The translations under genes were made by a program, and so were the position numbers. Source: an uncultured Bacilli bacterium (lineage in GTDB: Bacteria > Bacillota_I > Bacilli_A > RF39 > UBA660). From it: a stretch of DNA of 38,505 bases. The stretch is from assembly GCA_944332295.1 (NCBI GenBank), contig CALVJR010000010.1:1-38505 (forward strand). Reading direction: 5' to 3'. The notes beneath the pieces were generated by a model, which made no database searches, was not told where the DNA came from, and saw only the letters and a program-made list of their open reading frames with translations. This document shows positions 27,924 through 34,644 of this stretch, piece by piece (the stretch's first letter is position 1; every line of letters begins with the position of its first letter).

Positions 27924-28901
27924 TCATTTATCAATTTCTTCTACTTCTTTATTTAACATTTCTAAATAATCTTGTTCAGCAATAGTTAAGTGTTTTTGCA
28001 TATATTTATCAAATTCTCTATGCGCTTTTTCTAAAGCTTCTTTATATGATATGGTGCCTGTTCCTTTCAATATATCTTTTCTAGTCATTTTTAGAAATGA
28101 ATCTAATTCATTTATCCAATCTTTCATAGTCATTGGATTCCTATCTAAAGCATTAATCTCTGCTACATCTAAATAAGCTGAAACCATCCTATTTAAAGTA
28201 TTAAGTTCTTCCTCTGTTAGATAATTTTTAGCGATTTCAGTTTCACTCTTTGTTGGACAATTGCCTTTAAAATTAGTAAGGCCTAAATTGTTTTTTTTCG
28301 AATCAACTCTATAAAATATGATTTCAGCAGCAGTTTGTCCATGTGTAGCATAATGCATCTTATTCTGCACAGTTTTAAAAAATTCTATTGATAATTTATT
28401 TTTAGGATCATAGTCAATTGAAGTTGCATAAATATCTAATACCTTTCTCCAAAATATCTTTTCTGAAGATCTAATATCACGAATTCTAGCAAGCAATTCC
28501 TCAAAGTATGGACTTCCACCATTATTTTTTAATCTTTCATCGTCTAAGACAAATCCTTTAACCATATAATCTTTTAAAACTTTCGTTGCCCATATTCTAA
28601 ATTCAGTTGCTTTTTTAGAATTTATTCTATACCCTACAGCAATAATAGCATCTAAATTATAGTGTAAAACATTATATTTTTTACCATCACTGGCAGTTGT
28701 TAAGAATTTCTTAACAACTGAATCTTTTTCTAATTCACCTTCCTCAAAGATATTTTTTAAATGCATAGAAATATTATTTTTAGTGGTATCATAAAGATTA
28801 GCCATTACATCTTGACTCATCCATATATCTTCATTTTGAATATTAACATCAACTTTTACATTACCATCTTTTGATATATATATAATCATATTATTTTTCA
28901 T
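27924..28901 (-). CDS. RhuM family protein
   Basis: 325 residues from the ATG at 28901 (AAAGGAG 8 bases upstream; the earlier in-frame ATG has no ribosome site and lies next to the -10 box). It matches the RhuM family throughout: IWMSQDVMANLYDTTKNNIS and HLKNIFEEGEL (helix-turn-helix-like), YNLDAIIAVGYRINSKKATE, FRIWATKVLKDYMVKGF, and the C-terminal HYATHGQTAAEIIFYRVDSK and DFSRYMQ-like region (here EFDKYMQK). RhuM was named in a Salmonella pathogenicity island; its biochemical role is unknown, but it is often found on mobile and defence islands. Here it sits beside a broken qatC-like gene between two gtrII-type 3' ends. Confidence 0.9.
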   Translation of the reverse strand: MKNNMIIYISKDGNVKVDVNIQNEDIWMSQDVMANLYDTTKNNISMHLKNIFEEGELEKDSVVKKFLTTASDGKKYNVLHYNLDAIIAVGYRINSKKATEFRIWATKVLKDYMVKGFVLDDERLKNNGGSPYFEELLARIRDIRSSEKIFWRKVLDIYATSIDYDPKNKLSIEFFKTVQNKMHYATHGQTAAEIIFYRVDSKKNNLGLTNFKGNCPTKSETEIAKNYLTEEELNTLNRMVSAYLDVAEINALDRNPMTMKDWINELDSFLKMTRKDILKGTGTISYKEALEKAHREFDKYMQKHLTIAEQDYLEMLNKEVEEIDK

Positions 28902-28932
28902 AGCTAATCTCCTTTCAAAGTTTCTCAATATA

Positions 28933-29551: not shown

Positions 29552-29577
29552 AACTGGAAATATTTCCAGTTTTTATA
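29550..29577. terminator. Palindromic terminator shared by the GtrII remnant and the 29573-31360 gene
   Basis: A 24-base perfect dyad (29550-29573) with 11-bp arms AAAACTGGAAA/TTTCCAGTTTT. A T5 run follows on the plus strand and T4 on the minus strand. It is homologous in position to the terminator of the intact GtrII-like gene, and now also ends the convergent gene whose stop lies at 29573. Confidence 0.75.
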
Positions 29578-31360
29578 TTTTTTTATGACTTTCTTGGATA
29601 TTTTCTACTGGATGATCTGACAGCAACATATCAGCTGCCATTGTACCTGTTGCTAATCCTAATTCTTTTTCTATAGAAAAAGGAGGAATAAATCTGGTAG
29701 ATTTTTGATTAATACTTTCTATTTTAGAATTTAGTAATATCCAAAAATCAGGATTTTCTTGAACACTTAAACCAATTGCTTTTCCATAGCGCATTTTACT
29801 ACCTCTTATACTTCCAGCAGAAGAACCGAAGAAATCAAAGGTTTTATCATTGGAATTAATAATCAAGTTAGATATAAATTGAAAATCATTTTGAACATTT
29901 TCACCTACATAACAAGTCAATATAGGATGAATACCGTCTTGGGATGCACAATTTCTCATTAACGTCAAATCCTCTCGATACTCTTGAGATACATAACTCA
30001 TATAAGTAGGTTTATTTAATGCCAAAAGTCTAATATTTTCTACATCGTTTATAATTTTACTATCAAATAATCCTATCCAACCATTTAAATATGAACCTGT
30101 CCCAAACTTATCGGTAATTATTGCTTTATATACTGCATCATCTTTCAATATCCTTTTTACTTTCTCTACTTCTTCAACACCATGCTTACTTACCCATTCT
30201 TCTTGACCATTCTCATCTCTTCTTACTGCAATTTTAGAATGAGCTAAGCTCATTAGTTTTTCATGTAAACTTTCATCACTTATATTTTCTGTTTCCTCTA
30301 ACGTTTCTACTACTTGAGGAGAATTAATTTTCTTTATAACCTCACTATATTTAGGCAATTCTATAAACATTGCATCATCTACATTAATTACCTCAGATGT
30401 CTGGCAATCTGTATTACTATTTATATCAAAACAGAGCCCTAATGCATGTTTAATATCATCCCTATAGTAGGGTTCTGTTAACAATTGATTGGTCCAATAT
30501 TCAAAATCATCACTTGCTGAATCGTCGGGAATAATTGCTAACATTGGATTATTATTGGCATATATTTTCCAACTACGATCAAAAAAAGAGAAAACTGTAT
30601 CCTTATCTTGTCTAGTAAATTTTTTATTACTCATTAATATTTCTAAATTATTTTTTGCTGCTGTATAATCTCCTTCTAGAAAAGCTGAACGACTATATTC
30701 TATATTAAAATTATTAAACGGAAACCCTTGGCCTGTAAACTGCGAAAACCATTCAGGAGAATTTTCTGCATAGTAATAAGCAACAGATGGATTATTTGAA
30801 TAATATACTTTTCCAATACAATTTAATTGATGCCAACCAAATATCATACTGACACCATAAGATTCAAAAATCTGATTAATATGATTAATTTCATCATCTT
30901 TCGTTATTTTAAATTTTGAATCAAGACCATGCTCTTTTATACTTTCATAAGATGCCGAATTAAATGCGTGAAATTTATTTTTCCTATTAGCAATATGACT
31001 AACCATATATTGATATAGTTTGATTTTTTTATCATCATCTGTTAGACTTTCTTTTGTCATATTGTTCTTAGCTAAAATCGTACCCAAATATAACTCATTT
31101 ATATATCCATCTAATTTAGAATTACTAAACACAGAAGAAATATTTTCTTTTGACATAAAGTCCGTTATTTTACCAACAAATGAAGATACTTCATTCATAA
31201 TTGATTTATCTCTATTATCAAACATTATAAAATATTGTACCGCTTTACCTACGATATATTCTATTAGTCTAATATTTTGATTAACACTTTGATTTTTTAA
31301 AATAGTCTTTAATGGTCTTAATTCATTTATAAAACTATCAGAATTAAAATGGTTATTCAT
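29573..31360 (-). CDS. Large hypothetical protein with putative ADP-ribosyltransferase-like domain
   Basis: 595 residues, soluble, no signal peptide. I do not recognise a named family. Residues 130-215 contain KFHAFNSASYESIKEHGLD, then about 35 residues later GWHQLNCIGKVYYSNNPSVA followed by YYYAENSPEWF. The order His-x-x-x-Ser...Ile-x-x-x-Gly-Leu, then Tyr-Tyr-Ser-x-x-Pro-x-x-Ala-x-x-Tyr-Ala, is that of ADP-ribosyltransferase/PARP-like folds (compare yHgTs...I...GL and yfs...A..YA), but the catalytic Glu is not clear. The C-terminal 200 residues (KVKRILKDDAVYKAIITDKF, GTGSYLNGWIGLF, FDFFGSSAGSIRGSKMRYGK) form a second domain of unknown kind. It follows the frameshifted Nudix gene by 36 bases; the ribosome site AAGGGTGAG lies upstream of the ATG. 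Confidence 0.7.
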   Translation of the reverse strand: MNNHFNSDSFINELRPLKTILKNQSVNQNIRLIEYIVGKAVQYFIMFDNRDKSIMNEVSSFVGKITDFMSKENISSVFSNSKLDGYINELYLGTILAKNNMTKESLTDDDKKIKLYQYMVSHIANRKNKFHAFNSASYESIKEHGLDSKFKITKDDEINHINQIFESYGVSMIFGWHQLNCIGKVYYSNNPSVAYYYAENSPEWFSQFTGQGFPFNNFNIEYSRSAFLEGDYTAAKNNLEILMSNKKFTRQDKDTVFSFFDRSWKIYANNNPMLAIIPDDSASDDFEYWTNQLLTEPYYRDDIKHALGLCFDINSNTDCQTSEVINVDDAMFIELPKYSEVIKKINSPQVVETLEETENISDESLHEKLMSLAHSKIAVRRDENGQEEWVSKHGVEEVEKVKRILKDDAVYKAIITDKFGTGSYLNGWIGLFDSKIINDVENIRLLALNKPTYMSYVSQEYREDLTLMRNCASQDGIHPILTCYVGENVQNDFQFISNLIINSNDKTFDFFGSSAGSIRGSKMRYGKAIGLSVQENPDFWILLNSKIESINQKSTRFIPPFSIEKELGLATGTMAADMLLSDHPVENIQESHKKI

Positions 31361-31396: not shown

Positions 31397-31788
31397 TTAC
31401 ATTAAATCTCTTTTAATCAATTCTGGAATAACATAATCTCCTAGAATACTACCTACTTTTATTCCTAACTCTTTATAATTTCTATCAATCCAGAGAGCTT
31501 CTTTTATTTCATTATTACACTGTATTTCTCCTTCTATTTTTACAAGATAAGTAATAACTTGTAATTGTTTATTAGAAAAAACAGCAATATCCTGATAAGT
31601 GCCAAGATATTCTGTATCTATAAGCTGAACACTTAACTCTTCCATTAATTCTCGTTTTAATGTCTCAAAATCAGACTCACTGCCTTCCCTTTTACCACCA
31701 GGAATAATACACTCTTCTCTACCATTATTTTTTCTTTGAACTAATATTTTTTTATCTTTTAAATGACTCCTCCAACTTTATCTATCAT
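31397..31788 (-). pseudogene. Nudix hydrolase with a one-base frameshift
   Basis: A complete Nudix box, GKREGSE...RELMEEL (pattern Gx5Ex7REUxEE), is encoded at about 31625-31695. The gene should start with ATG at 31788, which has AGAGGTG 4 bases upstream and reads MIDKVGGVI, then stops. Adding one T in the TTT run at 31761-31763 would give MIDKVGGVILKDKKILVQRK and continue through the box to the stop at 31397, about 130 residues, the normal Nudix length. The other in-frame start (ATG at 31645) would cut the box in half. It is either a true inactivating deletion, a slipped homopolymer that varies between cells, or a sequence error. Nudix enzymes split nucleoside diphosphates linked to another group. 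Confidence 0.85.
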
Positions 31789-33757: not shown

Positions 33758-34644
33758 ATGAACAACAATAAAATCATTGTAAATAATATTCAAATATCCA
33801 TTGTACAAACGAATGCTACAGACTATATATGTATTTCAGATATTGCCAAAGCAAAAGAGGGAAATAGCAGTTCAAAAGATATAATTAAAAACTGGATAAG
33901 GAATAGAAAAACTTTAGAATTTATAGGGACTTGGGAAATACTTTATAATGCAAACTTTAATAGGGTCGAATTCGACTCCATTAAAGCAAATGCTGGATTA
34001 CATACATTCACTCCAAATCCAAGTGAATGGTGCGAAAAAACAAACGCCATAGGAATCTATTCTAAGCGTGGTAAATATGGAGGAACCTATGCCCTAAAGA
34101 TATAGCATTTGAATTTGCATCAGCAATTAGTCCAGTTTTTAAATTATATTTAATCAAAGAATTTCAAAGACTAAAAGAAAAAGAAAATAAAGGTATCGAA
34201 TGGAATACAAAAAGAATACTAACAAAAAACAACTATTTAATTCATACCAATGCCATTAAAAATTATATATTACCAAAAACTGATTATTATAAAGATAAAA
34301 CCTGGCTAAAATATGCGGAAGAAGCGGATATATTAAATGTTATTATTTTTAAATCAACTGCAAAAGAATGGAGAAATCTAAATCCAACATTGGTCAAAAC
34401 TACTAATATGAGAGACTACGCCAGTATTTATGAACTTACTGTACTATCAAACTTAGAGTCTCATAATGCAGAACTAATAAAAGAAGGTAAAACCAAAGAA
34501 GAACGATTTCTAATATTATCAAGTATTGCAGATGAACAATTAAAATTATTAAATAAAAAACGATTAGTATTATTTTTTACTAGTCGCTTTTATATTCCTA
34601 TTTATAGAAAATTTTTCTTTATAATAATCAATTGCCTCTGGTAA
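33758..34644 (+). pseudogene. KilA-N domain protein, frameshifted
   Basis: The first 110 codons encode a KilA-N domain (ISDIAKAKEGNSSSKDIIKN, WIRNRKTLEFIGTWEIL, NAGLHTFTPNPSEWCEKTNA, then IGIYSKRGKYGGTYA). At 34093-34095 one base is missing: GTYA should continue HKDIAFEFASAISP, but CCT stands where CAT would be, and the frame stops at 34105. In the next frame the protein continues without a break: PKDIAFEFASAISPVFKLYL, IKEFQRLKEKENKGIEWNTK, and so on to DEQLKLLNKK near 34563, the usual end of this family; that frame stops at 34644. KilA-N proteins are DNA-binding, found in phages and bacterial accessory islands. The strong likeness on both sides of one deletion implies recent damage or a sequence error. 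Confidence 0.88.
34558..34590 (-). terminator. Terminator of the tandem metallopeptidase gene
   Basis: Stem CGATTAGTA/TACTAGTCG (34561-34569, 34578-34586) with one G-U pair, flanked by AAA/TTT pairs, then T6 on the minus strand. It lies at the convergence with the KilA-N gene and includes the stop codon of the metallopeptidase gene. Confidence 0.75.

What the first reader, a model, noticed from the sequence alone, without database searches (positions are those of the whole stretch)
29573..31360. Large two-domain protein with ADP-ribosyltransferase-like motifs
The series FHAFNSASYESIKEHGL, then VYYSNNPSVAYYYA, recalls the His and Tyr strands of ADP-ribosyltransferases. The protein is intracellular, unlike toxin effectors with signals, and lies at the end of an operon with a DNA alkyl-damage repair gene and a Nudix gene. 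It might modify a host or phage target, or act on nucleic acid as DarT does.
Basis: inference. Interest (0 to 1): 0.6.

Follow-up and report, generated by a model that had tools for sequence, protein, structure and literature searches.

The report
Soluble cousin of membrane-anchored ADP-ribosyltransferase-like proteins
The gene encodes a cytoplasmic protein from an undescribed family of PARP-like (ADP-ribosyltransferase-like) proteins found so far in one family of uncultured Bacilli, most of whose members are membrane-anchored and encoded at one fixed chromosomal site; this copy lacks the anchor and has a second domain, and whether it is an active enzyme is not shown.

Summary
In detail: a 595-aa ORF on the minus strand (29573-31360) carries FHAFNSASYESIKEHGL (residues 130-146) and VYYSNNPSVAYYYA (185-198). 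No curated family matches it, but 69 homologous sequences were collected, all from the host's own taxonomic family. An insert-deleted family profile searched against all PDB sequences puts RNA 2'-phosphotransferases, PARP13, PARP16 and PARP12 in the top nine places; the reversed profile finds none. Spacings agree with PARP16 (His to Gly 14, strand Tyr to Tyr 11). Where motif-I His131 is lost, Tyr197 is usually lost too (about four of five lineages), while most other conserved columns stay, so the two residues probably share one site. No invariant third acidic residue exists. Most homologues (51/69) end in a transmembrane segment; 49 of those lie beside fmt. The window copy belongs to a separate soluble clade and has a C-terminal domain related to DUF4116 repeats. 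Best reading: an intracellular mono-ADP-ribosyltransferase-like protein of the H-Y clade with a DUF4116-like targeting domain. Fold likely (~0.85); catalysis unproven (~0.5). It is not DarT, Tpt1 or a Pfam-recognised PARP. A confident structure model could not be made here.

The parts
29573..31360 (-). Gene for the 595-aa two-domain protein (ART-like domain plus DUF4116-like domain)
   Evidence: ORF list; SD-like AAGGGTGAG 8 bases before the ATG; full-length relative L004, 48% identical
31049..31360 (-). N-terminal region, residues 1-104, shared with the anchored family; probably mostly helical (inference)
   Evidence: alignments A1 and A2
30326..31048 (-). ART-like domain, residues 105-345
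   Evidence: family of 69; PDB profile search
30917..30979 (-). Motif I, residues 128-148 (NKFHAFNSASYESIKEHGLDS): His131 and, 14 residues on, Gly145
   Evidence: KptA profile-profile match; PARP16 and KptA alignments
30746..30811 (-). Motif II, residues 184-205 (KVYYSNNPSVAYYYAENSPEWF): strand Tyr186 and stacking-type Tyr197, 11 apart
30341..30409 (-). C-terminal strand of the ART-like domain, residues 318-340 (DCQTSEVINVDDAMFIELPKYSE); expected place of the third catalytic residue, no invariant acid
29576..30268 (-). C-terminal domain, residues 365-595, with a divergent DUF4116-like unit (about residues 445-476)
   Evidence: window fragment vs DUF4116 E 0.051; relative L014 E 2.1e-4; profile A9 finds true DUF4116 repeat proteins L130 and L131 at E 2.6e-7 and 4.8e-6
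31397..31788 (-). Upstream Nudix gene of the presumed operon; frame broken near 31760 in this assembly
   Evidence: NUDIX E 1.1e-9 on the long frame; intact in L002; 36 bases to the ART-like gene

Best explanation
The protein is an intracellular, soluble member of a new family of ADP-ribosyltransferase-like domains of the H-Y (PARP/Tpt1-like) kind. His131 (motif I) and Tyr186/Tyr197 (motif II) would hold the nicotinamide-ribose half of NAD+, and the domain would transfer a single ADP-ribose to a target, more likely a protein of the cell or of an invader than bulk DNA. The C-terminal DUF4116-like domain would bind or select the target. Shown: the sequence family, motif register, paralogy and architecture. 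Inferred: the fold (about 0.85), NAD+ use (about 0.5), the target and the role of the C-terminal domain.
For: An insert-deleted profile of 16 family members (A8) against 177,635 PDB sequences: the nine best are all of the ART superfamily (Tpt1/KptA, PARP13, PARP16, PARP12), with PARP14 and one further ART lower down; the PARP alignments run through both motifs. A profile without the divergent HGT members still puts five Tpt1 sequences on top; the reversed profile gives two unrelated hits. KptA profile match far above shuffles, reversed KptA and eight unrelated families. Divergent members carry canonical FHGT/YHGT (L112, L113, L085). H131 to G145 is 14 in 69/69 and column 186 to 197 is 11 in 64/69, as in PARP16. 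Joint loss: of about 50 conserved columns Y197 tracks loss of H131 most closely (56/60 vs 2/9, p 1e-5), while T188, D189, G145, P202 and R279 do not; placed on the tree this is about four separate joint losses. H-Y without Glu is compatible with mono-transfer: PARP16 is H-Y-Y and active (PMC7955679, PMC3372510). Two ADP-ribosylglycohydrolase-family genes in the genome could reverse the mark.
Against: Individual E-values are weak (0.05 at best) and needed deletion of an insert between the motifs; the full profile finds nothing in the PDB and no Pfam ART model matches. Beyond motif I, the comparison with KptA is not distinguishable from chance. No invariant third catalytic residue; column 329 is D/E in only 36/69. 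Nine members have lost His, so the family tolerates forms that are probably inactive. The window copy departs from residues common in the anchored group (G127, Y128, T188, D189, R279). AlphaFold without an alignment was unusable.
Confidence: 0.55

Rival explanations
1. An ART-like pseudoenzyme: the fold is kept but used to bind a partner, NAD+, ADP-ribose or RNA, as in PARP13, with no transfer reaction.
For: No invariant acidic residue; nine family members have lost His131 and mostly Tyr197 while the rest of the domain stays conserved; the window copy departs from the anchored consensus at G127, Y128, T188, D189 and R279.
Against: 60 of 69 members keep His131 and all of those have Tyr or His at 197, so the pair is under selection in most lineages; H-Y-Y PARP16 is active (PMC3372510).
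Confidence: 0.25
2. A nucleic-acid-directed enzyme: an RNA 2'-phosphotransferase (Tpt1/KptA) or a DarT-like DNA ADP-ribosyltransferase.
For: KptA/Tpt1 is the best single PDB relative; the gene lies near an alkyl-DNA repair gene.
Against: No PTS_2-RNA or DarT match; only motif I aligns with KptA; no macrodomain (DarG-like) in the genome.
Confidence: 0.08
3. Not an ART at all: the two motifs are a chance resemblance in an unrelated fold.
For: No confident fold model; weak single E-values; nothing beyond the motifs matches.
Against: All nine best PDB sequences are ARTs and the reversed control has none; both spacings fit; motif residues are lost together.
Confidence: 0.12
4. A horizontally exchanged anti-phage effector of a small defence locus, whose ART-like domain acts during infection (this can hold together with the best explanation).
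For: RhuM (27924-28928) and KilA-N (33758-34105) genes on either side match PADLOC candidate models; no mismatch to a sister genome over 29780-31350 while flanks mostly differ by 2-6%; variable location of relatives.
Against: No PADLOC match for the protein; no relatives in phage, plasmid or viral collections; PADLOC candidates of this kind are unproven.
Confidence: 0.2

Closest known systems
PARP16/ARTD15 (human tail-anchored mono-ADP-ribosyltransferase)
   Same: Motif I (YAFHGSRLENFHSIIHNGL) and motif II (TYLTSDLSLALIYS) align in register with the family profile; the anchored relatives have a similar layout, an N-terminal part, an ART-like domain and one C-terminal transmembrane segment; it also lacks the usual Glu
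   Different: The window protein has no anchor and has a DUF4116-like domain instead; a longer insert lies between the motifs; no match to PF00644
RNA 2'-phosphotransferase Tpt1/KptA (PF01885)
   Same: Motif I (LYHGT, then GL 14 residues on), best PDB rank
   Different: No family-model match; motif II and the C-terminal part not alignable above chance
PARP13/ZAP ART-like domain
   Same: Aligns over both motifs; its His is replaced by Tyr, as in seven family members
   Different: A zinc-finger antiviral protein of vertebrates; the window copy keeps the His
DUF4116 repeat proteins (PF13475)
   Same: C-terminal domain contains a divergent unit; profile A9 finds true DUF4116 proteins
   Different: About one recognisable unit rather than arrays of 8-18; below the Pfam cut-off
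DarT (PF14487)
   Same: Intracellular ART of bacteria
   Different: No model match, no macrodomain antitoxin in the genome

Membership tests
ART superfamily, H-Y-[EDQ] clade | Motif I: His in strand 1, of the form Hx[ST], followed by a helix and GL | tested here: met
   His131 and Gly145 14 apart as in KptA and PARP16; the window has HAF and divergent members HGT, so the Ser/Thr position is not kept in the window copy
ART superfamily, H-Y-[EDQ] clade | Motif II: strand Tyr and second, nicotinamide-stacking Tyr | tested here: met
   Y186 and Y197, 11 apart, as in PARP16; Y197 is lost with H131; the strand Tyr itself varies in the family
ART superfamily, H-Y-[EDQ] clade | Motif III: Glu, Asp or Gln at the front of the C-terminal strand | tested here: inconclusive
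   Window D329 is a candidate; the column is D/E in 36/69 and Lys or Asn in the two nearest relatives; E323 is shared by these three
ART superfamily, H-Y-[EDQ] clade | ART fold with NAD-binding groove | tested here: inconclusive
   AlphaFold2 without alignment, mean pLDDT 37.8; homologues from the genome search are not on the predictor's list of admitted sequences
ART superfamily, H-Y-[EDQ] clade | NAD+-dependent transfer | not testable with these tools
   needs a biochemical assay
PARP family (PF00644) | Match to the Pfam PARP model | tested here: not met
   No match for the window protein or relatives
RNA 2'-phosphotransferase (PF01885) | Match to the family model | tested here: not met
   only motif I aligns
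DarTG | DarT domain together with a macrodomain antitoxin | tested here: not met
   No DarT match; no Macro family match in the genome
DUF4116 (PF13475) | Match above the gathering score | tested here: not met
   Window 13.6 bits, L014 21.2 bits, cut-off 24.9; remote relation supported by profile A9

The most novel reading that the evidence does not exclude
A family of uncultured Bacilli carries, in its priA-fmt housekeeping cluster, a vertically inherited tail-anchored PARP-like enzyme on the inner face of the membrane, a bacterial counterpart of PARP16; the window gene is a soluble offshoot with a DUF4116-like targeting domain that spreads between lineages.
Probability: 0.35. Interest if true: 0.75.

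Novelty: new variant of a known kind. Interest (0 to 1): 0.55.

Why it matters
Most bacterial ARTs that have been studied are toxins or parts of toxin-antitoxin and defence systems (established knowledge). A chromosomal, syntenic, membrane-anchored ART-like family conserved across many genera would point to an endogenous ADP-ribosylation role in small genomes where little signalling is known. The joint losses of H131 and Y197 give natural, probably inactive forms for comparison, and the soluble window copy offers a tractable protein for assay.

Tried and rejected
Pfam, NCBIfam, PHROGs, PADLOC and PDB searches with the single protein: nothing useful. Viral, phage and plasmid searches: no relatives. 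Whole-family profile against PDB without deleting the insert: nothing. AlphaFold2 on the ART-like domain and on the C-terminal domain alone: pLDDT 37.8 and 35.3, so no fold search was made. I did not hand homologues from the genome search to the predictor because its stated rule does not list them. Motif II and the C-terminal part against KptA: not clearly above shuffles. PDB test of the other N-terminal domain fused to the same C-terminal domain (L014/L016): no hit. PARP and DarT sequences from the phylum for profile comparison: none usable. DarT and Tpt1 identity: rejected (membership test). E323 (CQTSE) as the catalytic residue: not excluded, but invariant only in the three-member soluble clade.

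Full report
What is there. The ORF at 29573-31360 is on the minus strand, starts with ATG behind an SD-like sequence and codes for 595 aa. It has no transmembrane segment and no match in Pfam, NCBIfam or PADLOC and only chance-level ones in PHROGs. The two motifs of the finding are at residues 130-146 and 185-198. Upstream on the same strand lie a Nudix gene, a Tim44-like gene, a 144-aa gene and an MGMT-type repair gene, closely spaced, so transcription as one unit is plausible (inference). A sister genome, L002, has the same block.

Relatives. A protein search of 291 genomes of the host's family found 36 with a match; a profile found 59 of 385 in the order and 9 of 395 in the class, all of them members of the host's own family. 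No relative was found in viral contigs, phages or plasmids. After collection, 69 different homologous sequences were at hand. Only L004 (48% identical) shares both domains with the window protein; L005 shares the ART-like part. These three form a fully supported clade.

An anchored, syntenic main branch. Of the 69, 51 end in a strongly hydrophobic segment within the last 45 residues. Of those 51, 49 have fmt in the short flanks held, 28 of them priA as well; none of the 18 without such a segment has either neighbour. Longer stretches show the order uppS, cdsA, rseP, priA, family gene, fmt, membrane protein, rlmN in many genera, including the host's own genome at G000:C34 (names given by reading the protein sequences). 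In L066 and L067 another large gene takes the place of priA, but fmt still follows. With no signal peptide seen and almost nothing after the segment, these look like tail-anchored proteins with a cytoplasmic ART-like domain (inference). The host genome therefore carries both an anchored paralogue and the soluble window protein, and so does the genome of L004 (L115).

ART-like nature. (a) The conserved core is G[YF]x[FY]H[SGA][FT]xS, GL 14 residues after the His, then an insert, a strand ending in TD, and a Tyr 11 after the strand aromatic. Divergent relatives carry literal HGT (L112, L113, L085). (b) A 16-row profile with the insert left out was run against 177,635 PDB sequences. The nine best are Tpt1/KptA (5), PARP13, PARP16 (2) and PARP12; PARP14 and one bacterial ART follow lower, among unrelated hits such as erbB-4. 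Removing the HGT-type members leaves five Tpt1 sequences on top. The reversed profile has two unrelated hits. Each E-value alone is not significant (best 0.05); the composition of the list is what counts. (c) Against an 11-sequence KptA alignment the profile scores 34.5; 150 shuffles reach at most 19.5, and eight unrelated families from the same genomes at most 21.5. The match is limited to motif I; later parts are not above chance. (d) H131 has been lost in nine sequences, which the tree puts in about five lineages. Y197 is lost with it in seven sequences, about four lineages, while all 60 sequences that keep the His have Tyr or His at 197. Among about fifty conserved columns none tracks the His so closely (tree). 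The rows are related, so the p value is only a guide. The pair corresponds to the motif-I His and the nicotinamide-stacking Tyr of PARPs (PMC7955679).

What is missing. There is no invariant acid at the expected third position; D329 of the window protein is a candidate, but its two nearest relatives have Lys and Asn there. Human PARP16 has Tyr at that place and is an active mono-ADP-ribosyltransferase (PMC7955679, PMC3372510), so this does not settle activity. The fold could not be shown: AlphaFold without an alignment gave a mean pLDDT of 37.8, and the predictor's rule does not list loci from the genome search as admissible.

The second domain. Residues 365-595 are shared with L004, with two proteins that have another N-terminal domain (L014, L016) and with a stand-alone 160-aa protein (L024). 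L014 matches DUF4116 at E 2.1e-4 and the window fragment at 0.051, both under the curated cut-off. A profile of the five finds two long DUF4116 repeat proteins at 2.6e-7 and 4.8e-6. I read it as containing a divergent DUF4116-type module; its role as a target binder is inference.

Recent exchange. Compared with L002 the block differs by roughly 2-6% in most 250-base bins, but there is no mismatch from 29780 to 31350, almost exactly the gene. Synonymous sites are as identical as the others (1 synonymous and 2 non-synonymous codon changes in the whole gene), so this is recent exchange or replacement rather than constraint. Other short stretches are also nearly identical, so the block is a mosaic. 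Together with the unrelated neighbourhoods of L004 and L005 it suggests that the soluble form moves. RhuM and KilA-N genes on both sides match PADLOC candidate models, which makes a defence role a fair rival but no more.

Verdict. A new ART-like family, with the window protein as a soluble, two-domain variant. Fold about 0.85, catalysis about 0.5, target unknown.

Noticed in passing
G000:C34:9236-10372 (L065) and L066-L069, L073-L077, L082: Own-genome paralogue and many relatives are C-terminally anchored and sit just before fmt, usually after priA, in a housekeeping cluster; a conserved, unannotated gene of this family of Bacilli.
   Followed up: yes
window 29780-31350 versus L002: No mismatch over 1.57 kb that coincide with the ART-like gene, while flanking DNA mostly differs by 2-6%: recent exchange of this gene.
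   Followed up: partly
window 31397-31788: The Nudix gene is frameshifted near 31760 relative to L002, so it is either a recent pseudogene or an assembly error.
   Followed up: partly
window 27924-28928 and 33758-34105: RhuM protein matches PADLOC candidate PDC-S05 (7e-150) and a short KilA-N protein matches PDC-S22 over 113 of 281 positions, so it may be a fragment.
   Followed up: no
L103:388-2358: A relative with the ART-like domain fused to a C-terminal region weakly like HipA_C kinases (E 0.016).
   Followed up: partly
L014:622-1941 and L016:610-1938: Another N-terminal domain with a GLHG motif is fused to the same DUF4116-like C-terminal domain; no known family matched.
   Followed up: partly
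G000:C18:166-1002 and G000:C54:5516-5935 (L132, L133): Two ADP-ribosylglycohydrolase-family (PF03747) genes in the host genome, no macrodomain gene; possible erasers of ADP-ribosylation.
   Followed up: no
L010, L031, L032, L057, L091, L092, L096, L100, L101: Anchored members that have lost His131, most of them with Tyr197: probably inactive forms that are still conserved at the same site.
   Followed up: yes
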